Origin: Antedon mediterranea | Lineage: Eukaryota > Echinodermata > Crinoidea > Comatulida > Antedonidae | Direction: 5' to 3' | NCBI RefSeq assembly: GCF_964355755.1 | Contig: NC_092678.1 | Coordinates: 3,420,922-3,484,921, forward strand | DNA: 64,000 nt | Shown here: one piece after another, positions 2,371-55,160 of the stretch | Numbering within the stretch: the first letter of the stretch is position 1 | How the letters are laid out: the number at the start of each line of letters is the position of its first letter | Translations under genes and position numbers: made by a program | Notes under the pieces: model-generated | Database searches by the model: none | What the model saw: the letters and a program-made list of their open reading frames with translations, nothing else | Told to the model about the DNA's origin: nothing

Positions 2371-2723
2371 CTATTACCACTGTACTACAAAAAATACAAT
2401 TCTGTGTGTAGGCTAGGTTGAGTAATACAATTTAGAATGCCCTCGTTTAACGTTTGACTTAAAAAATTAGTAAAATTCTATTTTATTATGAAAAATTCAA
2501 CATCACTTTTTAAAATTATTTTTAAATGCTCGTTCTACGTTATTACTGTTAATGAAAAATTATTAGGGTTATTATGAATGTTGTTGCCAAGGTTACAAAA
2601 ACTTTCTGCCAGCTACACTTCTGTTAAATGAATTAAATATCCAACAAAGTATTTCTTAACTGTTTTGTTGTCTCCAATTTTCATAAAAATTTCACAATTC
2701 TATTTAAATCTATTTGTTTTCAG

Positions 2724-21633: not shown

Positions 21634-22904
21634 TGCTCTACAATGTTGGAATTGTTGCAAAAGGTATCACAATGCATAGTAGTTTTTGAGCATGTGCAGA
21701 TATTTAATTATGCTTTTATAAAAGTTTAAAATAAAATTTGTATATGTGCTTAATATTGCAGTGGTAAATAAGAAATAATAATCATGGTAAAGTTGATACA
21801 AACCAAGAAAGAATTAGCACTTTTGAATAAAGATTTACAAAATAAACTAAATGCATAAGCAGTGTACGTTTATAGAATCAAGCAGGTTAATCAATAGATT
21901 TAAAAACACATTTTTAAATACTGCCAGAATTATTACATAAATTTATGTAAATTTGTTCAACAAAGTTTAAAATAAAATATTAGATAGTTATAGAATATTT
22001 CTTTATTAAAGTTAATATTACCATGAAAATATTCATCCATGTAAGGAATTCATCCACTGTAAAATATTCATCCACTGTAAAATATTCATCCACTGTATAG
22101 ATACACTATAAAGGTGTATGAAAAATAGTTCTAATTACTAAATCATAGACATTGGTCTGCGAGTGACAAATAACTCTATTAAAGTGAATGAAATTGTATT
22201 GTTATGAACGTATATCTTTATAATGGAGAAGAAAATGCCAAAAAAGTCAAAAAAGTGTATTCTATGCATTCCAGAACAATAATGTAAATAAGCTATACAA
22301 TGTTACAATGGATTTGGTGTAGACTAAATTAAAACATGACCACTATAAACAGTTTTTATTACATTCCAACGAACTTAAAATATATTAATGAAAGATAAAG
22401 AAAGAGTGACCAGATGATCGGAATTTATTCAATTCACAATTCTGCTGCGCATGCCCATTTTTTAAGCTAATTTTTGCATTTATAAGTGGATTTTTTAAAC
22501 TGTTAAGCACATACAGTTTTTGTTTATTTTTTAACCTAATAAACCTTTTTGACCAGTATACAGTTTTGGAGAATCTATAATGTTCATTTTATTAGTAATA
22601 GTTTGTTTTATATTTTTATGTTGACATAATTTAACTAAATATATCTTTATAAATTATATGTAAACTATTTTTATACGTTGTCATAAGCAAGATAGGTTTG
22701 GTTTGATTTTTATTTTTCTAAATGCCTATTATAAAGATTGTATATAAAACAAGATTTAGTCATGCGTGTTCCAAAAGATGCCATTTATAAAGATTGTATA
22801 ATAATGGTATTTGTAGAGTCCATTATCCATCATGAAATATTATATTAACAATTTTATATATTTTATGATGATTTTTATATATTTTATCTAACTTGCAAAA
22901 TAAA
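21634..22904 (+). other. Plexin 3' untranslated region with direct repeats and poly(A) signal
   Basis: AT-rich sequence after the TAA at 21631-21633. Several AATAAA signals occur; the last clear one is at 22899-22904. At 22027-22100 an 18-bp direct repeat with core ATTCATCCACTGTAAAAT is present three to four times. The end of the UTR is inferred. Confidence 0.5.
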
Positions 22905-24885: not shown

Positions 24886-27800
24886 ATGAACCGACTTGCA
24901 GTAATTGTCTTGGCTGTGGCAGTTTTTGCTACTCTCGCCGAAGCAAAGAAATTTGCTAAAAAGGAGGAGGAGGTAGGCTTAAGTTCTTATAATTATCTTT
25001 TTCATTACTCACATGAACCATTGTATAGAGCCTATACTTACTGTAATCATCCACAAGGTTGATTACTGATACATTTTATTAATGTTTTCCTTTTTTTGTT
25101 CAGGGCCTCTCGAATGAACACTTGTGTATTGTTGAATGTAAGTAGTAAACTGAATCTAATACCTGTAATAATCATAATGATTTTGATCGCTGTTGAATTT
25201 CATTAATATAAAACTTGCTAAACATCGGAAACATTGCATACAATGAAGGTATTGCAAACGCCGAGATTAATTTATATATGTATATATATAGTAATATTAA
25301 TCAATAAAATATTAAACGTCTATTATTTTAATATATTTCCACAAACAAAACAAGCACAAAGATACAGATACAAAATTGCTTGCTTGTAGAATTAAAACAA
25401 AATAGACACTGAAATTATACAGTATAAAGAATACAGGCACGGTGATACAGGAGTATGCCTATTAACTTTATCTTCCTTCTAATATAAATAATGTCTCTCG
25501 GCACTATATATCCATTTATAGATTTGGGTATATTAGTTAGTTAGTTATCTTTTTGATTATATTATAAGATGATGCCCGTCCATTGGACGGGTAAATACTA
25601 ATAGGCCTATATATTATAATAATGATGATATTGAAAATAATGATGATGTTGAAAATGATGCTGCTGATGACGACGAAGATGGTGATGCTGTAATAAATAC
25701 AAAAACTTAACAAGCAAGTTTACTTTTTATCCAAGGCATGTGTAATGTATTTGACGAAGACAATAACGATTATCCAGTCGATTGTATGCCAAATGCATGT
25801 GAATATTCTGAAACACCTGAAAATTGTTGTAATGAAGATGAAGCCAATGGCTGGTTTTTCTATATTTCTGCTACGGGGGTGTGTTTTGATATCAAATGTC
25901 AAGGAAGTAAGTTTAAACATGAATTGTTCCATGGTTTAAAGATGAATTTACATGAAACTCGAACAAATATATATATATTTTAATTGCTCATACCAAAGAA
26001 TTATTTCTTGATGTGTCTAAAACTGTTTCTTCTCCCAGAAATTAATAGTGTTCACAGCTTTAACCAGTGTTTTGAATAATTTAACGAGTAATGTTTGTTG
26101 TCTTTGTTTTGTTGTTCTCTAGATGCTGCTGGCTGGGAAGAAGCATGTGGTAGGTATTAGGTATTGTTGTCAATAATATTAAAAGTCACGAAAGAAAATT
26201 TACGTCTTAAACGCCCATTAAATGTGCATGCCAGTGTAACTCCATCTATCAGGTTCAATATACATACTCCGAACGCTTATGGAAGTGTATTAGGCCAACG
26301 GTGGGTCATTGCGTTGTTCTCTCATGGCCCCCTCACTCTTTTTTCGACGGAAAACCCCAGAACTTGTTATACGTATTCTGTAGTGTTGTTTATTACTTCG
26401 ATACTGTGTACGTAATAAAAGGTTCTACTTGGCCAAGAGCTATTATTAATCTTCTAAAAAACATTACCAGTAGGCCTATCATTCCATTTGTTTTTTATGA
26501 TGTTGGTGAGAAGAATAGGCCTAATTTAGTAGGAAATAGATATATATATATATATATTTTGATATCGCATAAGCGACCATAACTATATTAATGTACAGCA
26601 ACGCCTACACTAGCAGATTCTCTTCGGGTAGTGTTTTCGGTGATGGGAAATTCCTTCTAAAACATCATCATACCACAACGTAGTCGTGATATGCAAATGG
26701 TTAATTATTGCTGAGGGCCTAAAGCTGAAGATTTACTAAGGTTCATACGAAGTTTTTAGTCGCGTGCAACTCGACTCTACAGCCCACTATGTCAGTCGGT
26801 TGGTCGGTCGGTCGTTAAATTAAGCCTAATACATAACTTGATGGCTTCGGTTATGTAGATCTACAAACCATAGTTAAAGTAAGTTAATATGCATTAGATG
26901 ATGTATTAATGTAAACATGTATGAAACTACGCTGATCATAATTGATGAAATAAAAGTTTTGGAAAAATCACAATAAAAAAAAGCTGAAATTAAATTAAAA
27001 TCATATAACGATGGCCAATAGAGCGTTTTCAAGTATGAAACGTCCGTTATGTCAATTCATTGTGCGGGGATATTGGGACGGGCTTTGCTCATCCTACCTG
27101 AACACAGTTTTGACGGTGCGACATCGTTTGACCTGACCTAGTTACGTCATTGGTCGTCGCAAATCGCAAGGTTTACCTCCTCAATAAGTAATATTATAAA
27201 GATGTTTTCTTTTCAATTAAAATTATATTAGGCCTATTTCATAATGATATTGAGCTTTTCACAAGATGAATATACTGTTTTTATTTTTTAAAGAATGTAG
27301 GAATGACATTGTCAACGGCGCAAATGGTACGTATGCTTTTATTTTTGTTTAATTTTTTTAACATCAAGTATTAATGGTTTTTTGCCAGTGACATGGAGAC
27401 GAGCATGAAAATATTAATACATTAATTCAATTTCAATATTGATATCCGTATCATAAATTTAAAGAAACCTTTTGTTAAACTGATTGATTATATTTACTTG
27501 AAGAGTATATACTTAACATTTTACGGCATCTTATAATATTAAATTTGAGTGTATTGTGACTGGATTTTGTGTGTGTTTTACTGCTATAATAAATATATTT
27601 ATTATTGATTGTTATACTTTTTTAAAGAAGGTTACATTTTCATAACTTCATATTTATTTTTGCTTGTTTTTTTGTTGCTAAAAATAAAGGGAATGAATGC
27701 ATTTCAATGTAAATTAAATGAAAGCTTGTTTATACAACGTAGAATTACAATACTAAAATAAGGCATTCTATGCAATATTAACATTATTATGATTAACATT

Positions 27801-28811
27801 TTCAAATTTCCAGTACAGGGGCAAATTAAGAAGACAACAGAATACATACAGTTATTGTAGCCTAACATAGATTACTCCTCTACATACATAATGCAAACAA
27901 GAGAAATAAACTCTGAATCATGTAGATTAATACATATTGTTATTCATAATATGATAGTTATTGTATTTGTTTAACTTTTTGGAATAAAAGATATCCTCAG
28001 TGCAGGAGATGATGAACTTCAATGTGGAGAAGGACAGGCTGGTGAAGATGAAGCGGGAGAGACTGACGAAGATATTGGTAAGACATTACTTTGTTTAAAA
28101 TAAATCATCATAAATCGCCCATAGATGGACAAACAGAAACAAGGGAGAAGTATTATTCTTTTTCCTTGTTTTTGTTTAAGCTTGGTTCCCACTAGAACGC
28201 AACGCAATAGTGCTGCAAACATCGATGGTTTGATTTCACGCTGGCGGGGGCAAACACAATGATTGGAAGGGCATTTTCTTATGTTGCGTAGATTGCGTTA
28301 CGTTGCGTCGCTAGTGGGAACCACACTTTATACGCATGCGAGGAAGAGGACCTGGTAAGGGTTCCACCTTTAAGCTTGGTTCCCACTAGCGACGCAACGT
28401 ATCGCAATCTACGCAACGTAAGCAAATGCCCTTCTAATAATTGTGTTTGCCTCCGCCTGTGTGAAATCAAACCTGCGATGTTTGCAGCACTATTGCGTCG
28501 TCGGTTCCCACTTGTGATTACGCATTCCATCACTCTGCGTCGATACGTCGCAGCGTTGTGCTCTAGTGGGAGAACCACGCTTTATAGGGTTACAGGAATG
28601 CCTATTATTTAATATTAATTAAATCAATAATATATTAAAATCTACCTTATTATCTGAAATAGATGAGAAGACTGCTGCTACTGCTAAGCGGGTAATGGCC
28701 AAAAAGAAGCTGATGGCTGCTAGACGCAAAGCAATGGCTAGCAAGAAATCGATGGCTAAAGAAAAGAAGCTGAAAGGTTTCATAGAGGCTTTCAAAAAAA
28801 GAAACATCTAA
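24886..28811 (+). CDS. Gene A: secreted acidic 12-cysteine protein with cationic MAAKK-type C-terminus
   Basis: Seven exons joined by phase: 24886-24972 (87 nt), 25104-25137 (34), 25736-25906 (171), 26123-26149 (27), 27294-27326 (33), 27991-28077 (87), 28663-28811 (149), giving 195 residues. Residues 1-20 are a signal peptide (MNR, hydrophobic core, TLAEA cleavage end). Residues 37-129 hold all 12 cysteines, an even number, including C-x-C and CC. Residues 118-146 are Glu/Asp/Gly rich. Residues 147-195 carry about 18 Lys/Arg with repeated MA-K/R-K motifs and no Cys. Exons 3 to 6 are all phase 1-1, so any could be skipped without a frameshift. Several acceptors are weak (CCAAG, AAAG), which would suit alternative splicing. 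The signal exon and last exon match gene B downstream. I do not recognise a named family. An acidic prosegment next to a cationic tail resembles antimicrobial peptide precursors; that is inference. Confidence 0.82.
28176..28330. mobile_element. GGTTCCCACTAG foldback element, short form
   Basis: It runs from AAGCTTGGTTCCCACTAG to CGCTAGTGGGAACCACACTT in the last intron of gene A. Its core includes GATGGTTTGATTTCACGC, shared in reverse orientation with the 28376 copy. Confidence 0.7.
28374..28585. mobile_element. GGTTCCCACTAG foldback element, uninterrupted long form
   Basis: It runs from AAGCTTGGTTCCCACTAG to CTCTAGTGGGAGAACCACGC. It is the best uninterrupted match to the outer element at 23638-24035. 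It lies about 45 bp after the previous element, in the same gene A intron and opposite in its core orientation. Confidence 0.7.
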
Positions 28812-32659: not shown

Positions 32660-35600
32660 ATGAACCGAGTCGCAGTCGTTATCTTGGCTGTGGCAGTGAT
32701 TGCCACACTCATCGAAGCAAGACCAAATCTTGCTAACAAGTTAAAGGTGAGTTATCCTTCTATTTTTACCGTTAGTGGGAATATCTTTTCTGTCTTTTTT
32801 ATTTGTTTGTTTGTATTATGCATTACATCGTGATGTAAATCTAAACATTGATAATGTTACTCTATCATCTAAACAAATATCCTTTTCTCGCTAGCTACCT
32901 GCTGATTGTTAAAAGCGCTTTATTGATATGACTACATCAATAACATACTCGCATTTCTAGTGTATTGTATTAAATCATCAAAGTAATATTGATACTAAAC
33001 ATACAAAGTAAAATACGTGATTTCCGGATTTTGAAAAAACTAACGGGAAGCTTCGATTATATTCCGTACTATAATAGTTTGGTTCATCGAGTGCACTCTG
33101 TAGAATTTGTGTTTTGTGTTTAATATACACCGAGTGTAACCGATGGAGGAACTCTCACGCAAAGAAACATTACAAACTAGGAAGGTATAATGAGGCATTC
33201 TATATACAGGTGTAAACTGTCATGCCACTCAAAGAAAACCCAAATTTGTGACTGCTTTTCTTTCGGGAGGGTATACTGTATTTACAAAAAGATTTTATAA
33301 AATAAAGCAAACTATTTATGCTTATATTTTTTGTTTTCAGAGTAAACGTGGAAAGAAATTACTAGAAAGTAAGTTTTAACCAAAATGGCACCATTATCTT
33401 AAAATTAATGTTCATTAAACAACCTATTAATATTTAAATAAATCACAAGACTCTCTAATGGTAAAAATGTAACATCTGTATTTAGAAAGAAAATGTATAC
33501 TTGTCTCATTTTGAGGCATTAGGTTCTGTCTCATGACATAAATCAAGATTTACCAATGCCCTGTTGACTGTAAAACAAACAACTTAACAATTTCTACGAT
33601 GAAATTAATTGATAAAACATTTTTAAATAAAAGGTTTATAAAAGATTCCAATACAAATACAACAAATAATGATGAAAAATATTATTTTAATAAGCTACCT
33701 TCTTGGAAATATTTTGGAGGCCACTAGAAATAAAATCACTAAATTATGTAACAACTATAGTAAAAATCTAAACATTTACATATTATTAAAAAAGGAATTG
33801 ACAATTTTTTTCTCAGTAATAAAGACCCCATTTTCTTTGATCTTAAATCCAATGATGTCTATCTATTAAATTCTGAGAACTGTGACGCCTCTAACGTCGA
33901 GGAAACTTCGCGACATCTAAAGATAAGAATCCATAAGAGTAGGGATTAAAATACACATATAGTACAAAGATATTAATTAGTAATAATAGAGAATTGTCTA
34001 GATCACAAAATACTTACCTGTATAAAAATGTAAGACCGTATTTCATTGCAGTGATGATGTTATTCGGCGTAACAACGAAACATTTTTGCTAACATTTTGT
34101 CATAACTCAAGTTTTCTTTTAATGTTGCTATGCTTTCGAAAGTTCGGAAACATTATTTTACATTACTTTAAACACTTCGGTGTCAATCAAAGACTTACAA
34201 ATGTTGGAAAAGCTCTTGAAAATCAAGTAAAAGCAGCTGATGTAAAATACATTCAAATAAATATTGTTATTGTTTTTTTTATAGTTTCTCAGAGAAAGAA
34301 AGAATGTAAGTATACAAAAATAGTTACCTTCAATTCAGTTTGCATTGAAGAATGCACCAATAATGATTTTCAAAAGCAGCATAAAACTGAATTAGTTAAA
34401 GACATATACAATCTTGTTATATTATTAATTGTTAATATTTTTTAATTTGTTATAATAATAATTATTAATTTCGCTAAACTAAACAATGAATTTTCTTCAC
34501 GTTTCTTGAATGCTGAACTATAAATTATTCTGATACTTAATGATTTGATTATTTTTTTTAAAACTTAAAGTAGCCGAGAAAAAAGATGTTTGTAAGTATA
34601 TCTTCTTTTTATTTATTGTTCTTATACAATCCGCAAAAATCAGAATAATAAACAATAATAAGCTTTATTTATTCATGGACACTTAACTCAACTAAAAGTT
34701 GTTTTTCAGTATGTAATAGAATGGTATACATCAACTTTTTGCGCTCGTATTTTAACGTACGTGCATGTTGCGTTTGCGTGGATTTTTAAAATTTAAATGT
34801 CTGTGAAATTTTATTTATCACAAAGGTCATCTATAATTCATGACGAAATTAATTTTAGCTTGAAAGTAAAGTTATTTGTGATTATTTTTATTTTGATTCT
34901 TTTAAGAATGTTTCCAACCTAGGCCTAGTTGTTTAGTATTTTTGAAGTTTATAATTTAAAAAAAAAAAATGTATGTGACATTTAAAGGATGATAAGGCTA
35001 ATTTAAAATAAAACGTGCTTTTTATGGTGTTAAATATAGGCTAAACATTGATTGTTTGGTGTCGTTTGTTAACACACTTTTATAGTGAATAAAAGAATAA
35101 ATAATATTATCAAAGAACTTATGATATTATCTACTTGCATGGGCAAGTGATCTGTTATTGTATTGTCAAATTCTATCTTAGCATTGGATCTACTGTATTA
35201 TACTGATTATTTTTACTGGAAGTTTTTTTAGACGGCCCTTGACAAATGTTCGAATTTCCACGCCACAAGCCGTGAAACCCCCAGGACTTATGACACAAAT
35301 TATGATAACATGTTTTGATTATGAAATTTAAAATTAAATTTGATTATGATTATTTTCACAGGGAGCGATGACGACTTCGATCTTGGTAAGTCTTTAACAC
35401 ATTTCCACAATGTTTATTTAAATCTATATGAAGTAGGGTAAAAGAATGCACAATAATAAAGTTACTTTAAAATAAAAACGTGTTTTATATTATTTCCAAA
35501 GATGACAAAAAATAAGTTTATTAACTCAAATTTCATAGTGATAATTAATTATAATAATTAACCTGCAAGTGATGCTACCGTATTGTTGAATAGATGAAAA

Positions 35601-38600
35601 TTATAAATATTGTGGAATGATGAATTTTATTAAAGGTAAACGTTCTTCCTAGATGGCGTATGGTATAACAATCACAAACAATTTCATGATAAATAAATTA
35701 GGCATAAACATTAAAAAAATATATTGTTAATAATAACTTACTTCGTATACCATATCCATAGAGTTATTTCTTTATCATCAAACTCATTCCAAAATTTTGG
35801 GATATTGTTGGATAGTGACATTTAAAGGATGATAAGGCTAATTTAAAATAAAACGTGCTTTTTATGGTGTTAAATATAGGCTAAACATTGATTGTTTGGT
35901 GTCGTTTGTTAACACACTTTTATAGTGAATAAAAGAATAAATAATATTATCAAAGAACTTATGATATTATCTACTTGCATGGGCAAGTGATCTGTTATTG
36001 TATTGTCAAATTCTATCTTAGCATTGGATCTACTGTATTATACTGATTATTTTTACTGGAAGTTTTTTTAGACGGCCCTTGACAAATGTTCGAATTTCCA
36101 CGCCACAAGCCGTGAAACCCCCAGGACTTATGACACAAATTATGATAACATGTTTTGATTATGAAATTTAAAATTAAATTTGATTATGATTATTTTCACA
36201 GGGAGCAATGAAGACTTCGATCTTGGTAAGTCTTTAACACATTTCCACAATGTTTATTTAAATCTATATGAAGTAGGGTAAAAGAATGCACAATAATAAA
36301 GTTACTTTAAAATAAAAACGTGTTTTATATTATTTCCAAAGATGACAAAAAATAAGTTTATTAACTCAAATTTCATAGTGATAATTAATTATAATAATTA
36401 ACCTGCAAGTGATGCTACCGTATTGTTGAATAGATGAAAATTATAAATATTGTGGAATGATGAATTTTATTAAAGGTAAACGTTCTTCCTAGATGGCGTA
36501 TGGTATAACAATCACAAACAATTTCATGATAAATAAATTAGGCATAAACATTAAAAAAATATATTGTTAATAATAACTTACTTCGTATACCATATCCATA
36601 GAGTTATTTCTTTATCATCAAACTCATTCCAAAATTTTGGGATATTGTTGGATAGTGACATTTAAAGGATGATAAGGCTAATTTAAAATAAAACGTGCTT
36701 TTTATGGTGTTAAATATAGGCTAAACATTGATTGTTTGGTGTCGTTTGTTAACACACTTTTATAGTGAATAAAAGAATAAATAATATTATCAAAGAACTT
36801 ATGATATTATCTACTTGCATGGGCAAGTGATCTGTTATTGTATTGTCAAATTCTATCTTAGCATTGGATCTACTGTATTATACTGATTATTTTTACTGGA
36901 AGTTTTTTTAGACGGCCCTTGACAAATGTTCGAATTTCCACGCCACAAGCCGTGAAACCCCCAGGACTTATGACACAAATTATGATAACATGTTTTGATT
37001 ATGAAATTTAAAATTAAATTTGATTATGATTATTTTCACAGGGAGCGATGACGACTTCGATCTTGGTAAGTCTTTAACACATTTCCACAATGTTTATTTA
37101 AATCTATATGAAGTAGGGTAAAAGAATGCACAATAATAAAGTTACTTTAAAATAAAAACGTGTTTTATATTATTTCCAAAGATGACAAAAAATAAGTTTA
37201 TTAACTCAAATTTCATAGTGATAATTAATTATAATAATTAACCTGCAAGTGATGCTACCGTATTGTTGAATAGATGAAAATTATAAATATTGTGGAATGA
37301 TGAATTTTATTAAAGGTAAACGTTCTTCCTAGATGGCGTATGGTATAACAATCACAAACAATTTCATGATAAATAAATTAGGCATAAACATTAAAAAAAT
37401 ATATTGTTAATAATAACTTACTTCGTATACCATATCCATAGAGTTATTTCTTTATCATCAAACTCATTCCAAAATTTTGGGATATTGTTGGATAACGTTT
37501 TTAAATTTAAACTTTTCAATATTTTCTGGTATTATGCGGTAATTAATATTTAATTGTGTTATCGACAAAACAACATTTTTTCTATGCTTATACCTTTTAA
37601 ATAAAAAATCCAATACTGTTCAATCGAATTAAAAGATGGGCCATATATAACGATTATACAATAATTATAAAACGTAATGATATAAGTTAATTTGAATTGT
37701 TTATGATTATTTTCACAGGATCGTTGTCCGATATTCCCGGTAAGTCAGATTTTTATTGTATCTAAATTAGGTCTATCTATACAACCACAACAGCGACATT
37801 TAGCAAAGTTTATGTCAAATAACTGCCAGACACATTCTTTGTAAAATGATCGGGTTAACGATACATTCACCCACGGAAATGGAAGAAACTATGATTACTT
37901 TCACATATTTTCCGTCACATATGTCATAACGTAGCTTAAGCAAAAAAACAAAAAAAATGTTAGTGTACCATTTTTATGCATATTAGGATATACTGATAAT
38001 AAAATTATTTATTTAGGTTCTTTCAAAGATGTTTAAACTGTCAATAACTTACTAAGATTAGTTGTATGTACTTAATTGTGTTAAACTACTGTGGAGTAAC
38101 TATGCGTCAGGGAGTTAATTTGTAAATACATTGAGAACAAGTTGTTCTTCGGTTGGACGCAAACCCACGACCTCCAGTGTTCTCAATGTACTTAGTATGT
38201 ATTTCAATGTTTATTGAGAGACCTCTAATAAATTTATCAGCATCTTTCAATTTGTTTAATAATAATAATATCATGGATTTATATAGCGATATATATATAA
38301 ACCAAATCGAAGTAAGGGGATACGCATTCGTCGCTAACCAGGGATCGGTCTAATTGAACTCCGGTTTAAAGGACCTAGATCTAAATTAGAATAACGATCG
38401 TTTTGAGGCAAATCAGTAAAGTAACAGTAAAACTGTACATGGAGTTAATTTTTATTAATTATTTAAATAAAGACTACTGTTGCACACATAATTGTAGCAC
38501 GCAGACGGCTATGTTTGTTGTAATATTCAATTGACTTTTCAGTGACGTGCATCCATTACATTATAATCGTGTTATGTTGTTCAATACGACCATTACTTAT

Positions 38601-39303
38601 TATCATTTTCTCTCTATGTTATTATGTTATGTAATACATCTATCGAATCAAAATTTGTTAAACCATTGAGAAAAACTATTTGTTTTTTCTCCATGGTAAA
38701 CGCAACGTGAACTTATGGACAAGATGAGTTTGCATATTGTTTACAGTGACAATAAATCCATATACTTGAAAAGCATCAATAGATTTTTAAAAGATAGCAA
38801 AACTGATTAGTTTGAGACATGCGTATACAATCTTTCGTTATAGGCAGCATATATTGCTAATTTTATTTTTGTTTGATTAATCACTGTTAATTTATATATA
38901 TACATTATCTTCACGTTTTAAAAGCTGAAATTTACATTATATTTTTACGTAATAAAAGTCATTAATATAATAATCTGATAAAATTGGTTTATGATTTTAC
39001 AGAAAATGCTTTGAGGCAGTCGCGAAGTCAGCCATTGTATTTAAAAAAAAAATTTTTGTGCCACTGTCGCCAATAATTAACAACGTTCGATTAAGTATAT
39101 AATTTTCCATTACTTATGAAACCGCCGGCGTGTGAATGTAGATTTTACTATTTATTTAAAAAATAACTACTGTTTGTTTGTTCGTTAGAAAATTCCCATT
39201 TATAAAATAGCAACTGTTAAACCACCATGTGATAAAGTTAATTAAAATAAGAAATTTCAGGGCCGTGGATGAACGTAATGTAGGCAAAAAATGAAATGTA
39301 TCC

Positions 39304-39335
<32 letters not shown>

Positions 39336-40044
39336 GTATTAGTGTTATTATTATTATTATTATTATTGAGGGGCACATTCATTGAAATAAGAAAATGAAT
39401 TGAAAGTGTTAAAAGTTAATTTGTAATAAATGTTTTTTATATTACTTTCACAGGTAAGTATTTCAGTATGTCCATACTGTAGTGTAAGCAACATGAAATG
39501 AAATGTAACTATCTCTTATGCCTATTATAGATTTTTAAAAAGTTTTAAAATGTCGTGTAGCCTATTAATATTATTAATATTATTAAGGGACCTATTCATT
39601 GAAATAAAAAATTATTGAAAGTCATAAAAGTTAATTTGTAATAAATGTTGTTTATATTACTTTCACAGGTGAGCAGTCGTACTCGTGTAAGTATTCCACG
39701 CATTTCCATACTGTAGTTTAAGCAATACGAAATGATATGTTACTATCGCTTATGCCTATTATAGATAAAAAAAAGAAGTTTGAAACGCAATGAAATGTTG
39801 GGTATCCTATTATTATTATTATTATTATTATTATTCTGGGGCCTATTCATTGAAATAAAAAATGAATTGAAAGTGATAAAAGTTAATTAACTATACCAAC
39901 TGAACAGCTAGGCTCCTCTTATATTATTTAATTGATTAATTCCTGTCACCCATTGATGTTTCTTCGTTTCGTATTGTTTATTTGACCAGCATATTTTAAT
40001 AGATCATTTCATTGAAAATGAATATGACACATAATACTCATAGC

Positions 40045-40111
<67 letters not shown>

Positions 40112-43100
40112 CGAGGGGCCTAACAATTATGGATGAATCTTCGAACTGTGATTGTGATTGGTGAATTCACTTACACGCATGCTAAAGCTTTAAAGTTTTA
40201 CCGAAAAATTACACAATAATTTATAATAATCAGAAAATCAAATAATCGTCCAATCAAATTACAGATTAGTCATGCGTCATAATAAATAGATACAATTGTT
40301 TTCATGTTGTATATTGATCTGTCAACTGATGAGTAAACAATAATGAAATATCATTAGATCGTTAATAATACGACTTGGGGCAAGCTTAACGCAAATGAGC
40401 CAGTTGAACCCCTCATGTTAAATAAAAACATAAAAAAGGAAAACAAAAGTAATTAATAAAATAAATTTAAAAAATGTAATTTCTGACTTTGTACTATTCC
40501 ATCATTTGTTCTTGAAAATGGATCCATTTTTTTATTATATTGTAGGCCTAAATGTTTTGTATTATTATATCTATGAAATCAAAATCTGATAAAATTGGTT
40601 TATGATTTTACAAAAAATACTTTGAGGCAGTCGTGAAAACATTTTTGTGGCACTTTCGCGAATAATTACAACAAATGAGTTTCTATTACTTATCAAACCG
40701 GCGCCATGTGAATGCATTTTGCTATTTATTTAAAAAATATTAAATTTATTAATATATGTAATACTATTTTTGGTTCGTTAGAAAATTCCCCTTTGTTTTA
40801 AAATTTTTATTATCGTTTTGATAATGATTTACCTTCAATAATTCAGGTTGCATATTGTTTACAGTGAAAGTAAATCCAGATACTTGAAAAGCATCAATAT
40901 GATTTTGAAAAGCTAGCAAAACTGATTTGTCTTGGACATGCGTATATAATCTTTCATTAGAGCGGCATAAAGCCTACTGCTAATTTTATTTTTATTTAAT
41001 TAATAATTTTAATTACCAGTTTCACTGTTAAAAAACATTTATATACATTGTCTTCACGTTTTTGAAAGCTGAAATTGACGGTACATTATATTTTTACGTA
41101 ATAAAAAAGAGTCATTAATATATATTTTTTACATACAGTAGCCGAGGACAAGAAGACCTGTAAGTATAGTCTATTTTATTGTGGCTTTATATGAACATTA
41201 AAACTTTGTTTGAATGTAAAATTTTTGTAGGCCTAACATTTTTAACTAAATTTTGAACTAAATATATATAATTTAACTTTCACATGGTCGTCATCCTGTT
41301 CTTAGTATTTTAAGTCATGTTTTAAGGGTCTTTCATACCTATTTCGGCACAGTTCCGGTAAGTATTTCACGCATGTCCATACTGTAATGTAAGCAATACA
41401 AATGAAATGTAACTATCTCGTATGCCTAGTAGTATAGATAAGTTTAAAAAGTAATGTCGAGTATCCTGTTATTATTAAGGGGCCTATTCATTGAAATAGT
41501 AAATGAATTGAAAGTGATAAAAGTTAATTTGTAATAAATGTTGTTTATATTCTTTTCACAGTGGGCTTGGTGTGGTTGTGTAAGTATTTCACACATTTCC
41601 ATACTGTAGAGTAAGCAATACGAAATGTAGGCTAACTATCTCTTATGCCTATTATAGATAACAAAGTTTAAGACGTAATGTCGAGTATCCTATTATTATT
41701 GAGGGGCATATTCATTGAAATAGAAAATGAATTGAAAGTGATAAAAGTTAATTTGTAATCGATTTTGTTTATATTACTTTCACAGTTGACTCGTACTTTT
41801 CGTCATGGTTGTGTAAGTATTTCACGCATTTTAATACTGTAGTGTAAGCAATATGAAATGAAATGTAACTATCTCTTAGTATAGATAAAAAAGTTTAAAA
41901 AGTAATTTCGAGTATCCTATTATTATTGAGGGGCCTATTCATTGAAATAGAAAATTAATTGAAAGTGTTAAAAGTTAATTTGTAATAAATGTTTTTTATA
42001 TTACTTTCACAGTAATACTGTAGTGTAAGCAATATGAAATGTTATTGTTACTATCTCGTATGCCTATTATAGATAAAAAAAGTTTGAAACGAAATGAAAT
42101 GTTGAGTATCCTATTATTATTATTATTATTATTGAGGGGCCTATTCATTGAAATAAAAAAATATTCAAAGTGATATGTAACTATCTCATATGCCTATTAT
42201 AGATAAAAGCGTACAATGATTTAAAATAAAATGGGGTTTATATTATTTTCATAATAATTAATTTATGGAATTCGGACTAATGAGATTATAATTAAATTAT
42301 TAACCTGTATGGGAGATTGATCCATATTGTCAAATTATAACTTAGCAATTGTTACCGATTATTTTTTACTAACGGTTCCATTTCTTACGAGGCCTTTTGA
42401 TAATTGTTTTGGCTTCTGCCACTGTAACCTATGAAATCTCCTGAATTTTCTACACAAATAAACTTGTGAAAAATATCATAACATTTTTGATAAGGAATAA
42501 TTTGAAATAAGTTGTTTTATGATTTTTTTCCACAGCGGAACAGCCTCCTGTCCGTAAGTTTTTAACACAACAAAAGTGACATTTTATCATGGTTCTAAAA
42601 TAACGTAAAATGAAAATGGGGTTTATTTTATTTTCATAGAATAATTAATTTATGAAATTCGGCCTAATGAGATATAATTAAATTATTAACAACTTGCATA
42701 GGCGATTGATCCATATTGTCAAATTATAACTTAGCAATTGTTACCGATTATTTTTTACTAACGGTTCCCTTTCTTACGGGGCCTTTTGATAATTGTTTTG
42801 GCTTCTGCCACTGTAACCTATGAAATCTCCTGAATTTTCTACACAAATAAACTTGTGAAAAATATCATAACATTTTTGATAAGGAATAATTTGAAATAAG
42901 TTGTTTTATGATTTTTTTCACAGCGGAACAGCCTCCTGTCCGTAAGTTTTTAACACAACAAAAGTGACATTTTACCATGGTTCTAAAATGAACGTACAAT
43001 GAAAATGGGGTTTACATTATTTTCATAGAATAATTAATTTATGGAATTCGGCCTAATGAGATATAATTAAATTATTAACAACCTGCATGGGCGATTGATC

Positions 43101-46100
43101 CCTATTGTCAAATTATAACTTAGCAATTGTTACCGATTATTTGTTACTAACGGTTCCCTTTCTTACGGGGCCTTTTGATACTTGTTTTGGCTTGTGCCAC
43201 TGTAACCTATGAAATCCCCTGAATTTTCTACACAAATGAACTTGTGAAAAATATCATAACATTTTAGATATGGAATAATTTGAAATAAGTTGTTTTATGA
43301 TTTTTTCCACAGCGGAACAGCCTCCTGGCGGTAAGTTTTTAACACAACAAAAGTGACATTTTACAATGCTTCTAAAATAACGTACAATGATTTAAAACAA
43401 AATAGGGTTTATATTATTTTCATAGAATAATTAATTTATGGAATTCGGCCTAATGAGATATAATTAAATTATTAACAACCTGGGCGAGTGATCCATATTG
43501 TCAAATTATAACTTAGTAATTGTTACCGATTACTTTTTACTAACGGTTCCCTTTCTTATGGGCCCTTTGATAATTGTTTTGGGTCTATCGAATAAAAACC
43601 TGTTAAACCATGGAAGACAAAAATCTTATGATTGATGAATTCACTTACGCGCAAGCTCAAGTTTTATCGAAAAATGACATAATAATTAATAACTATTATT
43701 GTTGTATTAAAAAAAAAAAGGTTTTTAAACAAAGTTATAATAATACTATATTATCATAATATTAATATTTTCTTTTTACAGTTCCGAACAAGAGGAATGA
43801 TGGAGGTAGGTTCACCGCGTTTATAAATATAAACTATTTTTCTTCCATGTTATTATGTAATACATCTATCGATTAAAAATCTGTTAAACCATTGAAGTAA
43901 AACATATTTTACTCCAGTATTTTTTACTGTCCTAGTCAAACATTAACGGAACTTATTTAAACTTCAGAAAATTAAAAAAAAGTAACAGATTAATCATTCA
44001 CGATAAATATATACTATTATTTTCATGTTGTATAATTGTTCTGTCAACTGATAATGTAAACAATAATGAAATATCATTAGTTTGTCAATACTCATGTAAT
44101 ATTTATCATAATTCATAATCAGTAAAATGATAATAATTCATTTTGAATTTTTTTTATATACGAGAAAACTTAAACTGCATAAGGCATTATGGTAAAATGA
44201 TAATAATTCATTTTGAATTTTCTTTATATACGAGAAAACTTAAACTGTATGAGGCGTATAATAATGATAATTATTACACTTTTGTTTACAGGTTTTGTTT
44301 ACGAAGGCAGCGGCGATGGTAAGTTGACGTTTTTACTGTTCTTCTGTTCATGAACCGCTTCCTAACTTATTTTCTGAAACATATTTTATCAACTGATAAA
44401 AAAATATAATAAATTACTTATAAATGTGATTTTTTAAATGTTGTGGGGAAAGCATCATTATGTTTGAATATAATTAATAATACAGGCTGAATAAATTAAA
44501 ATAAAATAAATTTGATTATATTGTAAACAAGTTATTAGAAAAATCACAGATTTATTACTTTAACTATATACAAACTTAAAACAGATTTTAAAGAAACCTT
44601 ATTATTAATAAATCCAATTACAAGATGCGCATGCGTCATATAATATATACTGTTATAATCACTTAACAATTACAAGATTGCTAATGTAAGTGTAATTCAA
44701 TATATTTTCGTAATACCATTACAGTATTAAGTTTTACTATAATAAATAATACAGGTTTAGTACTGTAATAATAATTTATTAAAAATCAAATCAATAAAAT
44801 ATAAAATAAATTGTACCTGCAATGTATGTATTATCATATCATGTTATATATCTTTTTATATACGAGAAACTTAAACTGCACGACGCATAATAATAATTAT
44901 TAAACTGTTGTTTACGAAAGCAGCAGTTGCTGTTCTTCTTTTCATTATTCCGGCTTAGTCCTGTTACTAACAGTACTAACAGTAAATTTATAATTAATAC
45001 ATTTAAAATATAACACAATTATGCTTGAACTTGAAACACAGAAATGTGTGGATACAAAATTATCTTGTAATATGTTGTATTATTACCATTACCTATTGAA
45101 TAAATCTTATTGAACTTTAGAACATTGAACCAATACCTCATACCTCATTGCTAATGTAATATAATATAAATAAAATATTTTTGTAATAGTATCATTATAT
45201 TTGACATAATTACTAGTTCAGTATAGTAATAATAATTTTTTATTGTTCTCATAAAAAAATTAAATATACCTGAAATTGATGTATTATTAATAGCATGTTA
45301 TTTTAATTATAATTCTTTCACACACTATTTTTTTTTTTACAGTTTTTGTTGATGAAGGTAAGTTTTAAAACAGAATTTATCCCCAGCTTCATGAACAGTT
45401 TTTGTTTTGAATGAGTTATACGATTGAAATAACAAACAAAATGGTATTTGGCACTGTTTATGCACTGATTCTGCTTACTGTAGGCTTATTTCACGCTTGG
45501 TCGCAATGCAAAGACGTAAGCGCGCCGCAAGTAATTAAGCGTGGTACCCACTAGCGACGCAACGCAAGGACGTAACGCAATGCAAGTGAATTGACCAATC
45601 ACAAGCGATGGCTTATTCGCTTGTCATTGCTAACTGTCTATAACTTCGCTTGTCATTGGTTAAAACGCTTGCGTTGCGTTTACGTCCTTGCATTACGTTC
45701 TAGTGGGAACCAAGCTTTAAGGGATGGATATTGTTTGCATGTGACTTTTATTTATCCATAAGAAAGAATTACCAAGTATAAAAACATCAATATGACAGAA
45801 TGAAATATGAACATAAAGGAAGGCGAGAAAAACTACATGCCTATCGAGCTCAACTTCCAAAATTAAAAAAAAAAGAAATGACATTTCTTTTAGAATATAT
45901 CAAGCAAATCATGTAAGAATTAATTAATATCAAAGTGCAGTAGTTATTGAGTATAATGCTTTATTTTTTTTAACTTTTTAGATGTTCGAGATGGTTCTGG
46001 CATGGGTAAGTTAAAAACTTTATTAATACTATAAAATGTTTATTGTAGTTTTTTTTGTCTTGTGTGAGTTCATCTCACGTTTATTTAAATTCTCATTGAT

Positions 46101-48464
46101 GAATATATTATATACATATAGGTAAGTTTTATTGTAGTTAGTGATAATTCATTATTAATCAAAGTAAATCGTAAGTACGAATATTTAGCAATTTGTACGC
46201 CCTGCATCCACTCCACATCCAGTAGGCTTATAAACAGTTCCATTAAACTGTTTTAAACTTTATTGATATCTATCATGTTTATAATTAGGCCTAAAATAAT
46301 TGTGTGTGTTAAAAGCTTTAACAAAATCAACAAAATCAAATTACAAGCTGCGCCGTATAGATACTATATAATAGTCATGTTTTCTTGTAATTTATTTTTT
46401 GCTGGTGGTATGGTACTATACTTTTACTTCTAAAATATACACTTTTTAAATTATTATTACCAATAAAAAAGAGAAGTGGGTGTTTCTTTTTCAGGAAGTT
46501 GACATATATGATTTATCTGATAATGATACAGTCAAATAATAATGTTAATAATTGTGTTGAATTGACATTATCATAATATAACCATGTTATTTGTTTTTTA
46601 TTATAGGTGATATGGAGGAGAGGGATGATGGTAGGTTTATGTTTTTTTTATTACAGTATATAGTTTTAGACGGTTTTGGGGTTTTTTCTTCTTATAAATA
46701 CTATTTGTTATCATGTTGTAAAATTGCTCTTTAACTGATAAGGTAAACAAGAATAAAATATTATTAGTTTGTCAATACTAATATTTACCATAATTATTCA
46801 ATTAAAAATCAATTTTATTTCATTTCCACATAGTTTTTGTATACTAATTTGTAGATGCAGTTTAAATAATGTAGTTGACTAATGTTTCATAAAGTAGTAA
46901 TGATTTTGAGAGTTTATTATTTTCGTATTTTAACAAAGAAAACAGATTGAAAACTATTGATATCAAATATATTTAATGTTTAAATTTAGAAAAGATTGGT
47001 TTGGTATGGGCTCGATAAGTTGATTTAAAACAAATACGAAGCGCTTTTTTCTGTAATTTAAAAAGATGGTCCAACTTTGTAGTTACCGTAGTAGTCCATG
47101 GCCATTGGAAATGTTTATTTGTAACAGTTCCCCATAACAAGTTACAATACGACAAATACGGAAAGAACCATGGTATTATAATGAAAAAAGAATATTTGTT
47201 GTTAAACTATATTTTTCTCATTGCTCCAATATTTCTTGATTTTTAGTTAATTGCTGTTTCAAGTTAAATTGGGTGTCAATTGTGATTCTAAGAAAATTTA
47301 AATGTTGTTTTTCTTTAATTAAAAGATTATCAATTTTGATTTTAAATTATTATTCCCTCGGACGTGTCTTCTGTCACTTAAAAAATATAAACGTTTGTTT
47401 ACAGGCAACGTTTCCACTGGCGACGACGCGGATAGTCACGGCAAGTTTGATTTTTTTAACTGTTTTTCTTTTCCCGAGCCACTTATGAACTTCTGAAATA
47501 TAAATTGTATTTTACCAAAAATAACTGTAATTTTCAATATATTTTCGCGATTGTATATTTAGGTTTGAATAATATTATAACTTAAAAACCCAAGTAAATC
47601 CAACTTCCAATTTATATTCTGTATTTTATTTACTCATTTGTTTTTGAGAATGGTTCCATGATGGTTCCGAAACGTCGATCTTTTTTCATAATTCCGGTTC
47701 AGTTCTGTAATAATAATTTTGAATTGTTGATTTGTATGCCCACCTCCACCAACAACAGGTTTCAATTTTTGCAAGTTAAATTTTACCTTAAATTGTTTTT
47801 ATTACTTGGGTAAAATGTTATATATATTATCAAAATATACAAACAGAAACAGTTCAATGAACATACTTGGCCGAGATTAAATGTTAGTTGCCATGTGCGT
47901 CATAATAAATTAATATTGACCAATCACAAACTGAACTGTTGCTTGTGATTCGTCAACTCATATTGTGTTTTGCCTACCTCATTGAGTTGCGTCCAGTTAT
48001 ATGTAAGCGTTAACAGCTCATCAATTAAAAAAATGTTGCTTGTAATTTGTGTCAAATATGACAAAAAAACATCGTGAAAAATAAAATTGTCGGTAACTTA
48101 TATTTTCATTTCAAATTAAAAATAATCCTTCGATTTATTTTGAATATTACAAAATTATAATTTTAAACATCTTTAATAAACAATTAAGTTTATTAGGACA
48201 TCGATTGATTTAGATTGGGTGGAAAGTGTAATATTGTCACATTATTGTAAGAGGTTACGTTATTTATTTGTATACTTATACTTGATATTAATAGGCAATG
48301 TAATAGGCAACAAGAAGACAAAGAAGGTTGCTCGTATGTTGGCGGCTAAGAAGATGATGGCGGCTAAGAAGATGATGGCGGCCAAAAAGGCGTTGGCTTC
48401 AAAGAACTTGCTGAAAGAGTTGGCTAAGAAGCGAGCCATGACCAAAGCCCTCAAGAAAAACTAA
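32660..48464 (+). CDS. Gene B: secreted micro-exon gene, at least 22 exons, cationic C-terminus
   Basis: Exons: 32660-32746 (87 nt), 33341-33368 (28), 34285-34305 (21), 34571-34591 (21), 35362-35385, 36202-36225 and 37042-37065 (24 each), 37719-37739 (21), 39669-39686 (18), 41139-41159 (21), 41562-41579 (18), 41786-41812 (27), 42536-42553, 42924-42941 and 43313-43330 (18 each), 43782-43805 (24), 44292-44318 (27), 45343-45357 (15), 45982-46005 (24), 46607-46630 (24), 47405-47440 (36), 48295-48464 (170). Joined, they give 235 residues without a stop. Exons 3-21 are all multiples of three and phase 1-1, so every one can be skipped singly. Signal peptide 1-20; Lys-rich segment with KSKR; acidic SDDDFDL-type repeats; EQPPVP repeats; acidic Gly-rich part; C-terminal 56 residues with MAAKK repeats, about 19 basic residues and one acidic. 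There is no cysteine. The first and last exons match gene A. I recognise no named family. The layout resembles schistosome micro-exon genes; orthology is not implied. Confidence 0.82.
33655..33950 (+). pseudogene. Penelope-like element fragment, degenerate
   Basis: One frame reads through KTPFSL and then, after a frameshift near 33855, a second frame gives DVYLLNSENCDASNVEETSR followed by HLKIRIHKSRD. This resembles the GIY-YIG endonuclease end of Penelope-like retroelements, whose recalled pattern is C-x-x-C-D-x-x-Y-V-G-E-T-x-R-H-L-x-x-R. Here the YVG is replaced by NVE and the frame is broken, so it is a dead fragment. It lies in gene B intron 2. Confidence 0.55.
34975..37494. repeat. Three tandem 840-bp cassettes, each with one 24-nt exon
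   Basis: Units are 34975-35814, 35815-36654 and 36655-37494, with sharp boundaries. Each carries the acceptor TATTTTCACAG, a 24-nt exon and the donor GTAAGT. By eye the copies are identical except two substitutions in the second unit, both inside its exon (GAT to AAT and GAC to GAA, Asp to Asn and Asp to Glu). Exon products are SDDDFDL, SNEDFDL and SDDDFDL. Confidence 0.92.
39302..39367. repeat. (ATT)n microsatellite
   Basis: A run of ATT units, slightly interrupted, in gene B intron 8. It is an expansion of the short ATTATT motif found in each ~210-bp cassette. Confidence 0.9.
39368..42230. repeat. Family of ~210-bp cassettes around 18-27 nt exons
   Basis: About six diverged copies share a donor-side block (GTAAGTATTTCACGCATTTC, then ACTGTAGTGTAAGCAATA), a middle block (GGGGCCTATTCATTGAAATA) and an acceptor-side block (TTATATTACTTTCACAG). 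Donor-side blocks start at 39454, 39687, 41357, 41580 and 41813; the copy after 42012 has lost its donor. Exons 39669-39686, 41562-41579 and 41786-41812 lie between acceptor and donor blocks. Two other acceptors (39453 and 42012) have no exon. Confidence 0.8.
40046..40111. repeat. (TTA)n microsatellite
   Basis: An almost pure run of about 21 TTA units in gene B intron 9, again at the ATTATT position of a worn ~210-bp cassette. Confidence 0.9.
42200..43595. repeat. Tandem ~388-bp cassettes, each with an 18-nt exon
   Basis: Three full copies and a truncated fourth. Exon ends at 42553, 42941 and 43330 are 388-389 bp apart. Each copy has TTATGATTTTTTTCCACAG or a close variant before CGGAACAGCCTCCTG and GTAAGTTTTTAACACAAC after the exon. 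Exons 1 and 2 are identical; the third ends GGCG. Introns differ by scattered substitutions and small indels, so the array is older than the 840-bp one. The fourth copy (43370-43595) ends before any exon. Confidence 0.88.
45485..45718. mobile_element. GGTTCCCACTAG foldback element plus a fragment of another
   Basis: A full copy at 45538-45716 (GCGTGGTACCCACTAGCGAC to TCTAGTGGGAACCAAGCTTT) closely matches the copy at 24444. A TTAA lies at both borders, offset by one base. A partial copy (CACGCTTGGTCGCAATGCAA) abuts it at 45492. It lies in gene B intron 18. Confidence 0.7.
46960..47300 (-). pseudogene. LINE reverse-transcriptase C-terminal fragment
   Basis: On the minus strand, 47155 to 46973 reads YCNLLWGTVTNK, then LDHLFKLQKKALRICFKS and AHTKPIFSKFK. 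This is the hallmark of the region after the catalytic domain in CR1/L2/jockey-type LINE reverse transcriptases (Y-x-x-x-x-W-G ... L-x-x-L-Q-K-x-A-x-R-I). A frame shift separates an upstream piece with IDTQFNLKQQL. No intact retrotransposon is present. It is antisense in gene B intron 20. Confidence 0.65.
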
Positions 48465-48496: not shown

Positions 48497-48879
48497 GTGT
48501 ATTTGATTGATATATGTTTAATCATTGGTGAATGGTGATGGGACCTTTAATATATAGGCCTACATTTATTCTGGCCACATTCGATATTCTTTCATCCTTA
48601 AGATAATATTTAACAACTTACATGTTTTAAATTGAGTTTATTTTTACAAAGTGTATTCATTATACACAGAAAGAGTGATATTCATGGAAACTTGTGAAAA
48701 TAACAATAAGAATAAAAACAACATTTTTAAATATGTACTATCTTATCTTTTAATAAACTTTATGCAGGCATTAATACTTTGTGTATATTGTTTTTCTAAA
48801 TTATGTGTACAATAGAACGACTTACAAATTGTGTATTTAAAGAGCAGGCAAAAAAATGTGCATGTTTGAGGGTGGGGAA

Positions 48880-49002
48880 GAAGACCCTGGGCAGAGGACC
48901 CTGGGCAGAAGACCCTGGGCAGAAGACCCTAGGCAAAATACCCTGGGCAGAAGACCCTGGGCAGAAGACCCTGGCCAGAGGACCCTGGCCAGAGGAAGAG
49001 TG
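48880..49002. repeat. 15-bp GACCCTGGGCAGAAG minisatellite
   Basis: About eight units of GACCCTGGGCAGAAG with AGG, GCAAAATA and GGCC variants. The unit length is a multiple of three, so frames stay open on both strands; there is no other sign of coding. Confidence 0.85.
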
Positions 49003-54212: not shown

Positions 54213-55160
54213 TTAAATTAAAAGGTTAGGAAAGCAATGGCCTAAAATAATTGCCTCTTGTTCATCCTTTTTCTTTTCATTCCATGTTTTTGATGGTCTG
54301 CCTCCTCTTCTTTTTTTTTCATTCCATGTTTTTGATGATCTGCCACCTCCTTCTTTTCTTTTCATTCCATGTTTTTGATGGTCTGCCTCCTCTTCTTTTC
54401 TTTTCATTCTATGTTTTTGATGGTCTGCCTCCTCTTCTTTTCTTTTCATTCCATGTTTTTCATGGTCTGCCTCCTCTTCTTTTCTTTTCATTCCATGTTT
54501 TTCATGGTCTGCCTCCTCTTCTTTTCTTTTCATTCCATGTTTTTGATGGTCTGCCTCCTCTTCTTTTCTTTTCATTCCATGTTTTTGATGGTCTGCCTCC
54601 TCTTCTTTTCTTTTCATTCCATGTTTTTGATGGTCTGCCTTCTCTTCTTTTATTTTCATTCCATGTTTTTCATGGTCTGCCTCCTCTTCTTTTCTTTTCA
54701 TTCCATGTTTTTCATGGTCTGCCTCCTCTTCTTTTCTTTTCATTCCATGTTTTTGATGGTCTGCCTCCTCTTCTTTTCTTTTCATTCCAAGTTTTTCATG
54801 GTCTGCCTCCTCTTCTTTTCTTTTCATTCTATGTTTTTGATAGTTTGCCTCTTGTTCATCCCTTTTCTTTTCATTCCATGTTTTTCATCGTCTGCCTCCT
54901 CTTCATCCCTTTTCTTTTCATTCAATGTGTTTCATAGTCTGCTAGGCCCCTTCATTCCTTTTCTTGTCATTCCATCTTTTTCATGGTCTGCCTCTCCTTG
55001 TTCATTCCTTTTTTTTTCATTCCATGTTTTTCATGGTCTGCCAACCTCTTCTACATTCCTTTTCCTTTCATTCCATATTTTTCATGGTCTGCCTCTCCTT
55101 TGTCCATTTTCTTTTCATTCCAAGTTTGTTATGGCCTGCCTCTTCTTCGTCCCTTTTTCA
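54213..55160. repeat. 42-bp minisatellite, open in several frames
   Basis: From 54213 to about 54850, some 14 units of 42 bp with core TTTTCATTCCATGTTTTTGA and TGGTCTGCCTCCTCTTC; to 55160 the units become longer and more degenerate. Because 42 is divisible by three and the unit lacks stops in several frames, long open frames arise on both strands. The minus-strand frame (204 codons) repeats MKRKEEEADH(E/Q)KHG. There is no splice-consistent partner exon and no other support for translation. Confidence 0.85.

What the first reader, a model, noticed from the sequence alone, without database searches (positions are those of the whole stretch)
32660..48464. A secreted micro-exon gene: 19 consecutive 15-36 nt exons, all phase 1-1
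Gene B encodes only 235 residues over 15.8 kb. Between a signal-peptide exon and a 170-nt terminal exon, every internal exon from the third to the twenty-first is a multiple of three, starts and ends in phase 1, and is flanked by clear acceptor and donor sites. Any subset of exons would keep the frame, so one locus could yield a very large set of secreted variants. The closest known design is the schistosome micro-exon gene class; I know of no such gene in the animal group this window suggests. Exon boundaries are read directly; the comparison and the diversity function are inference.
Basis: partly seen in the sequence, partly recalled or inferred. Interest (0 to 1): 0.95.

Follow-up and report, generated by a model that had tools for sequence, protein, structure and literature searches.

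The report
Secreted gene built from tiny exons
An unidentified animal carries a gene, probably for a small secreted protein, whose middle is stitched together from 19 exons of 15-36 letters, many copied in place and some apparently changing faster than the non-coding DNA around them, a layout best known from parasitic blood flukes.

Summary
Gene B (32660-48464, +) has 22 predicted exons, 708 coding nt and 235 residues; exons 3-21 are 15-36 nt, multiples of three, phase 1-1. Candidate micro-exons there split 20:1:1 by length mod 3; 60 shuffles average 0.68 of the in-frame class.

New here: (1) a neighbouring paralogue, gene A (24886-28811), shares the 87-nt signal exon, phase scheme and Lys-rich tail. 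(2) Nine of 19 micro-exons lie in tandem intron-exon-intron cassettes (840, ~389, ~225 bp) matched nowhere else in the genome, with decayed cassettes alongside. (3) In two of three cassette families the exon diverges more than its introns: the 840-bp copies differ at two bases, both in the 24-nt exon, both changing the protein, though perhaps one event. The third family shows no significant excess (P 0.24).

I read this as a fast-evolving, acidic, possibly selected segment ahead of a cationic helical tail. The layout is MEG-like; common ancestry with schistosome MEGs was not tested, and the animal is unidentified.

The parts
32660..32746 (+). Gene B exon 1, start codon and signal-like peptide MNRVAVVILAVAVIATLIEA..., 87 nt, phase 0-0
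   Evidence: 52% identical to gene A exon 1 over 29 residues, DNA 82% over 61 nt. No signal predictor was run; read by eye
33341..33368 (+). Exon 2, 28 nt, phase 0-1, basic
34285..34305 (+). Micro-exon 3, 21 nt
34571..34591 (+). Micro-exon 4, 21 nt; weak acceptor, missed by the scan; starts with the same 8 nt as exon 10
34975..37494 (+). Three tandem 840-bp cassettes, identical outside the exon
   Evidence: only these three places matched in the genome
35362..35385 (+). Micro-exon 5, 24 nt (SDDDFDL)
36202..36225 (+). Micro-exon 6, 24 nt (SNEDFDL): two replacement differences, 5 bp apart, from exons 5 and 7
37042..37065 (+). Micro-exon 7, 24 nt, identical to exon 5
37719..37739 (+). Micro-exon 8, 21 nt
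39436..39475 (+). Decayed ~225-bp cassette: acceptor TTTCACAG abuts donor GTAAGT, exon of zero length
39669..39686 (+). Micro-exon 9, 18 nt (~225-bp cassette)
41139..41159 (+). Micro-exon 10, 21 nt
41358..42175 (+). ~225-bp tandem cassettes: donor half of a truncated copy, live copies with exons 11 and 12, then a copy with acceptor but no donor (42013)
   Evidence: query 41358-41900 matched in the genome only itself, 39454-39888 and 41813-42175
41562..41579 (+). Micro-exon 11, 18 nt
41786..41812 (+). Micro-exon 12, 27 nt (9 nt longer than exons 9 and 11, frame kept)
42228..43582 (+). ~389-bp cassettes, 3.5 copies, the last without an exon
42536..42553 (+). Micro-exon 13, 18 nt
42924..42941 (+). 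Micro-exon 14, 18 nt, identical to exon 13
43313..43330 (+). Micro-exon 15, 18 nt, two differences from exon 14
43782..43805 (+). Micro-exon 16, 24 nt
44292..44318 (+). Micro-exon 17, 27 nt, acidic with EGSGD
45343..45357 (+). Micro-exon 18, 15 nt
45982..46005 (+). Micro-exon 19, 24 nt, DGSGM
46607..46630 (+). Micro-exon 20, 24 nt
47405..47440 (+). Micro-exon 21, 36 nt, GC donor, missed by the scan
48295..48464 (+). Terminal exon 22, 170 nt, Lys/Ala/Met-rich tail (net +18 with the joined codon) and stop; weak acceptor
   Evidence: predicted as one helix, mean pLDDT 86.9
24886..28811 (+). Gene A, paralogue: 7 exons (24886-24972, 25104-25137, 25736-25906, 26123-26149, 27294-27326, 27991-28077, 28663-28811), 195 aa, same phase scheme, Cys-rich 171-nt exon, acidic middle, Lys-rich tail
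   Evidence: model read by eye, two of its six acceptors score below 0

Best explanation
Gene B is a functional gene for a secreted precursor with three zones: signal peptide plus short basic stretch, an acidic, probably disordered middle made of micro-exons (net -28), and a Lys-rich helical tail (net +18). It belongs to a tandem family of at least two genes with gene A, which has the same ends but a cysteine-rich exon in the middle. The micro-exon array grows and shrinks by tandem duplication and decay of whole intron-exon-intron cassettes; since every live cassette exon is phase 1-1, gain or loss does not break the frame. Within cassettes the exon tends to change more than its introns, which I read as diversifying selection on the secreted middle. 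Most likely role (inferred): a host-defence or surface-active cationic precursor whose variable acidic segment shields or targets the cationic tail until processing. Shown by sequence: exon structure, cassettes, relation to gene A, exon-over-intron divergence in two of three families. Inferred: secretion, selection as the cause, disorder, defence role. Untested: transcription and exon skipping.
For: In-frame micro-exon candidates 20:1:1 against shuffle mean 0.68. Gene A matches exon 1 (52% over 29 aa; DNA 82% over 61 nt, E 5.6e-12 in a two-sequence comparison) and the tail (43% in the alignment, both low-complexity), with an 87-nt first exon and phases 0-0, 0-1, then 1-1. Each cassette type matched only this gene. 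Exon against intron mismatches: 840-bp family 2/24 against 0/816 (Fisher one-sided 7.8e-4); ~225-bp family exons 9/11 11/18 against 40/228 (1.1e-4), 9/12 8/18 against 35/223 (0.006), 11/12 6/18 against 29/233 (0.025), gaps left out; ~389-bp pair 14/15 2/18 against 19/384 (0.24). Combining the three families with the weakest ~225-bp value gives 4.2e-4, or 0.008 if the two changes in exon 6 are one event. In alignments blind to exon position, the exon window ties for most divergent in all three ~225-bp pairs; 3 of 179, 3 of 167 and 9 of 183 windows reach it. The exon length difference is 9 nt. Charges. Tail helix.
Against: No transcripts. The ~389-bp family alone is not significant, and exons 13 and 14 are identical while their introns differ. 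The two exon 6 changes lie 5 bp apart and may be one event (chance 24/840 = 0.03) or an assembly error. Exons are tiny, so each test rests on 2 to 11 exon changes, and the three ~225-bp comparisons share copies. For older pairs silent change is not low (exons 9/11 pN 0.63, pS 0.47; exons 4/10 pN 0.41, pS 0.60), which fits fast change of any kind, not only selection. At 100 degrees the tails are no more amphipathic than shuffles (606 of 1000 shuffles reach B, 761 of 1000 reach A), which weakens an ordinary amphipathic antimicrobial helix. No convincing family match.
Confidence: 0.48

Rival explanations
1. A MEG-type splice-variant generator: exons are skipped in many combinations so that one locus yields a pool of secreted variants.
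For: All 19 micro-exons are symmetric, so any subset keeps frame. Schistosome MEGs of this layout are reported to do so (passages of PMC4350168 and PMC5825161).
Against: 16 of 19 micro-exon donors are GTAAGT, which suggests efficient inclusion. Frame symmetry is also expected if exons merely come and go by duplication. No transcripts.
Confidence: 0.3
2. A casein/SCPP-like or proteoglycan-like secreted protein: the micro-exons encode a disordered acidic spacer whose bulk composition matters, possibly with sugar chains on its two acidic GSG sites, and it drifts freely.
For: Casein genes CSN1S1 and CSN1S2 also show extensive exon duplication, numerous small exons and skipping (passages of PMC12470106). 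EGSGD and DGSGM sites resemble glycosaminoglycan attachment motifs (recalled). Middle net -28.
Against: Free drift should not push exons above intron rates. Casein exons are in phase 0 (recalled), here phase 1. The tail is strongly cationic.
Confidence: 0.25
3. Mutation-driven: exon change comes from local template switching or gene conversion inside cassettes, not from selection.
For: One cassette lost its exon exactly between AG and GT; exon 12 shares short words with both exon 9 and exon 11, as patchwork exchange would give; the two changes in exon 6 are 5 bp apart.
Against: Such events would have to stop near exon edges and keep the frame in the live copies.
Confidence: 0.17
4. Chance pattern or pseudogene.
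For: Micro-exons are easy to invent in AT-rich DNA; exon 4 and the terminal exon have weak acceptors and exon 21 a GC donor.
Against: statistics, open frame, paralogue with the same ends, divergence peaks on exons.
Confidence: 0.03

Closest known systems
Schistosome micro-exon genes (MEGs)
   Same: Signal peptide, most coding sequence in short symmetric exons, introns of similar length, fast evolution; internal duplication of an exon length pattern is reported for MEG-26 (PMC10526429 introduction; passages of PMC5825161).
   Different: 60% rather than about 80% of coding sequence in micro-exons; exon skipping unproven here; the genome is probably not a flatworm (inference); no sequence comparison with MEGs was possible.
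Casein / SCPP genes of vertebrates
   Same: Secreted, many small exons, exon duplication and skipping (passages of PMC12470106).
   Different: Different exon phase (recalled), no cationic tail (recalled); no sequence link tested.
Sea-urchin centrocin / strongylocin antimicrobial precursors
   Same: Prepro-part ahead of mature chains; among centrocins the prepro-region is similar while the mature chains diverge (passages of PMC4805251).
   Different: Here the divergence measured is in the middle. The paper's main text does not hold the word intron, so gene structure could not be compared; sequences were not compared.
Venom toxin genes with exons evolving faster than introns (recalled)
   Same: Exon divergence above intron divergence.
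   Different: There between gene copies, here between micro-exon cassettes of one gene. Comparison from memory only.

Membership tests
Schistosome MEG | About 80% of coding region in symmetric exons of 6-36 bp (PMC5825161) | tested here: inconclusive
   19 symmetric exons of 15-36 nt make 423 of 708 nt, 60%: most of it, but below the stated figure
Schistosome MEG | Signal peptide; secreted or membrane-anchored product | tested here: inconclusive
   Hydrophobic N-terminus read by eye; no signal predictor was run
Schistosome MEG | Variants made by alternative splicing | not testable with these tools
   No transcripts available
Schistosome MEG | Sequence relationship to flatworm MEG families | not tested
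   No flatworm genomes held; Pfam gave 0 families for both proteins, which does not settle it
Schistosome MEG | Occurs in platyhelminths (said to appear restricted to them, PMC4350168) | tested here: inconclusive
   IRF-domain matches (4 places) and 150 GT29 match places do not, from memory, fit a flatworm; the species is not identified
Amphipathic cationic antimicrobial precursor | Cationic tail behind an acidic pro-part | tested here: met
   Net -28 and +18 in gene B, -29 and +16 in gene A
Amphipathic cationic antimicrobial precursor | Amphipathic helix | tested here: not met
   Helix predicted for B, but the moment at 100 degrees is not above that of shuffles in A or B. B is higher at 80 degrees (0.48), without a shuffle control
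Casein/SCPP | Small exons in phase 0 (recalled) | tested here: not met
   All 19 micro-exons are phase 1-1

The most novel reading that the evidence does not exclude
An animal outside the flatworms has independently evolved a micro-exon diversity locus: frame-neutral cassettes that duplicate and decay inside one gene, with the coding bases between constant splice sites turning over faster than the introns around them, so that the intron frame is the stable part and the tiny exon the variable part, possibly further mixed by alternative splicing.
Probability: 0.38. Interest if true: 0.82.

Novelty: new variant of a known kind. Interest (0 to 1): 0.62.

Why it matters
MEGs were said to appear restricted to platyhelminths (PMC4350168, passage) and are discussed there as host-parasite genes. 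A comparable gene elsewhere would mean the design can arise without a parasitic flatworm ancestry. The 840-bp array may catch the process at work: three copies identical in 816 flanking bases, with the only two changes in the 24-base exon. That makes the birth, decay and selection of micro-exons measurable within one gene and across individuals.

Tried and rejected
Transposon origin of the cassettes: one query of each cassette type was searched in the whole genome and matched only this gene (such searches can miss weak copies).

Larger family: queries of B ends (limit E 10) gave 5 matches: B's own tail and exon 1, gene A's exon 1 at E 3.1, and two places on C4 at E 8.6 and 10, which I dropped. 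Queries of A ends gave A's own tail and exon 1 and B's exon 1 at E 2.1. Neither search recovered the partner's tail, so relatives as diverged as A and B would be missed and the family size is open. An early guess pattern for the tail found nothing.

Cys-rich exon of A: one place, itself; its model is poor (mean pLDDT 49.7), so no fold search was made. RNA families: none at gathering score in the window. Amphipathic helix: not supported. A 12-nt exon tried in my first gene model gave a stop and was placed wrongly by the script; it was dropped, and the sequence at 42013 is read as a decayed cassette. One search translated gene A's last exon in a wrong frame and was not used.

The matches all lie on C1-C11, which hints at 11 large chromosomes; I recall about 11 for some feather stars, but the passage says most echinoderms have 36-46 (diploid), which does not support it. 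The species stays unidentified.

Full report
1. Observation. I rebuilt gene B from the raw sequence. The exon chain joins in one open frame of 708 nt (235 residues and stop). Exons 3 to 21 are 21, 21, 24, 24, 24, 21, 18, 21, 18, 27, 18, 18, 18, 24, 27, 15, 24, 24 and 36 nt, all entering and leaving in phase 1, and make 423 of 708 nt. Of the 19 donors 16 are GTAAGT, 2 GTAGGT and 1 GCAAGT; exon 4 and the terminal exon have poor acceptors. A generic splice scan finds 20 candidates of length 0 mod 3 and one each of 1 and 2 mod 3; 60 shuffles average 0.68 in-frame, maximum 3; looser and stricter thresholds gave 20:2:2 and 17:1:1. Of these 22 candidates 17 are model exons, 5 are not, and two model exons were missed. 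Counting each cassette family once leaves 11, still above every shuffle.

2. A paralogue next door. Gene A (24886-28811) came up through its signal exon (E only 3.1 genome-wide) and was read by eye as seven exons, 195 residues. The link rests on exon 1 (52% over 29 residues; DNA 82% over 61 nt, E 5.6e-12 in a two-sequence comparison), the Lys-rich tails (43%, low complexity), the equal 87-nt first exons, the same phase order and their neighbourhood. A has two micro-exons of 27 and 33 nt, an acidic middle and a 171-nt cysteine-rich exon. Two of its six acceptors score below 0. The genome searches did not recover the partner's tail, so further diverged members may exist. Neither protein matches Pfam or PDB sequences at E up to 1; NCBIfam gave nothing for A and two hits far below cut-off for B.

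3. Cassettes. Three array types carry nine of the 19 micro-exons: 840 bp x 3 (exons 5-7), about 389 bp x 3.5 (exons 13-15) and about 225 bp (exons 9, 11, 12). One query of each type matched only this gene in the 354-Mb genome. Decayed cassettes remain: one with acceptor and donor touching and no exon (39436-39475), one with acceptor but no donor (42013), one with donor half only (41358), and a fourth ~389-bp copy without its exon. Exons 4 and 10 start with the same eight bases and may go back to an older duplication.

4. Exon faster than intron. The 840-bp copies are identical in 387 upstream and 429 downstream bases; the only two differences are in exon 6, and both replace a residue. One-sided Fisher P is 7.8e-4, but the two lie 5 bp apart; as one event the chance is 0.03. 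The ~225-bp exons differ at 11/18, 8/18 and 6/18 positions against 40/228, 35/223 and 29/233 in flanks (P 1.1e-4, 0.006, 0.025; gaps left out; not independent). The ~389-bp pair 14/15 gives P 0.24, and exons 13 and 14 are identical despite intron differences, so this family adds no support. With the weakest ~225-bp value the three families combine to 4.2e-4, or 0.008 with exon 6 as one event. In alignments made without marking the exon, the exon window ties for most divergent in all three ~225-bp pairs. For older pairs silent change is also high. Gene conversion or template switching confined to exons is the more serious alternative to selection, and an assembly error at exon 6 cannot be excluded from the assembly alone.

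5. Mechanism. Shown by sequence: a frame-neutral cassette system within one gene. Inferred: the product is secreted; its acidic middle is disordered and under diversifying selection; the tail acts on polyanions such as microbial surfaces. The tail is predicted as one long helix (mean pLDDT 86.9, single sequence), but its moment at 100 degrees does not exceed shuffles in A or B, so an ordinary amphipathic antimicrobial helix is not supported. Two GSG sites leave a proteoglycan-like role open.

6. Known systems. MEGs: most of the coding region in very small symmetrical exons, signal peptides, 'appear to be restricted to platyhelminths' (PMC4350168, passages); about 80% of coding sequence in exons of 6-36 bp (PMC5825161, passages); PMC10526429, abstract and introduction. 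Gene B works like a MEG in layout; membership was not established, because homology and splicing could not be tested. Caseins (PMC12470106, passages) show that many small exons and exon duplication occur outside flatworms, so the layout alone is not unique. Literature: 'micro-exon genes' with 'echinoderm' gave 0 papers; wider searches gave 62 papers, 30 listed, 5,383 papers, 15 listed, 3 papers, 3 listed and 394 papers, 20 listed; no listed title names such a gene outside schistosomes. Unlisted and subscription papers were not seen.

7. The animal. Not identified. IRF-domain matches (4 places) and 150 GT29 sialyltransferase match places (142 of 221 candidates scored; places are exon-sized pieces, some with stops, not genes) fit, from memory, an invertebrate deuterostome rather than a flatworm. 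Two direct tests gave nothing.

8. Verdict. On checking I lowered confidence, the odds of the novel case and interest slightly, because the two exon 6 changes may be a single event.

Noticed in passing
39436-39475: Acceptor TTTCACAG directly followed by donor GTAAGT with no exon bases: a zero-length exon that also looks like a recursive splice site.
   Followed up: partly
25736-25906: Gene A exon encoding a cysteine-rich, acidic segment of about 57 residues without a family match; the only match in the genome is itself.
   Followed up: partly
G000 contigs C1-C11: 150 match places to the sialyltransferase family GT29, a striking expansion, some with stops inside.
   Followed up: no
about 23780, 24440, 28180, 28370, 31697 and 45500-45715: Repeated element with words such as GCTTGGTTCCCACTAG and ACGCAACG, MITE-like, seen by eye; two of these places match 45535-45567, in an intron of gene B.
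   Followed up: no
54269-55148: About 20 copies of a 42-bp tandem repeat with long open frames on both strands, including 223 residues on the minus strand.
   Followed up: no
48875-48993: 14-bp tandem repeat GGGCAGAAGACCCT, 8.5 copies, just downstream of gene B.
   Followed up: no
48336-48382: 18-bp tandem repeat, 2.6 copies, inside the terminal exon: the MMAAKK motif seems to have grown by in-frame duplication.
   Followed up: no
2632-21634 and 62600-63271: Plexin-like gene upstream and an SH2-like exon downstream, both recognised by eye; no search made.
   Followed up: no
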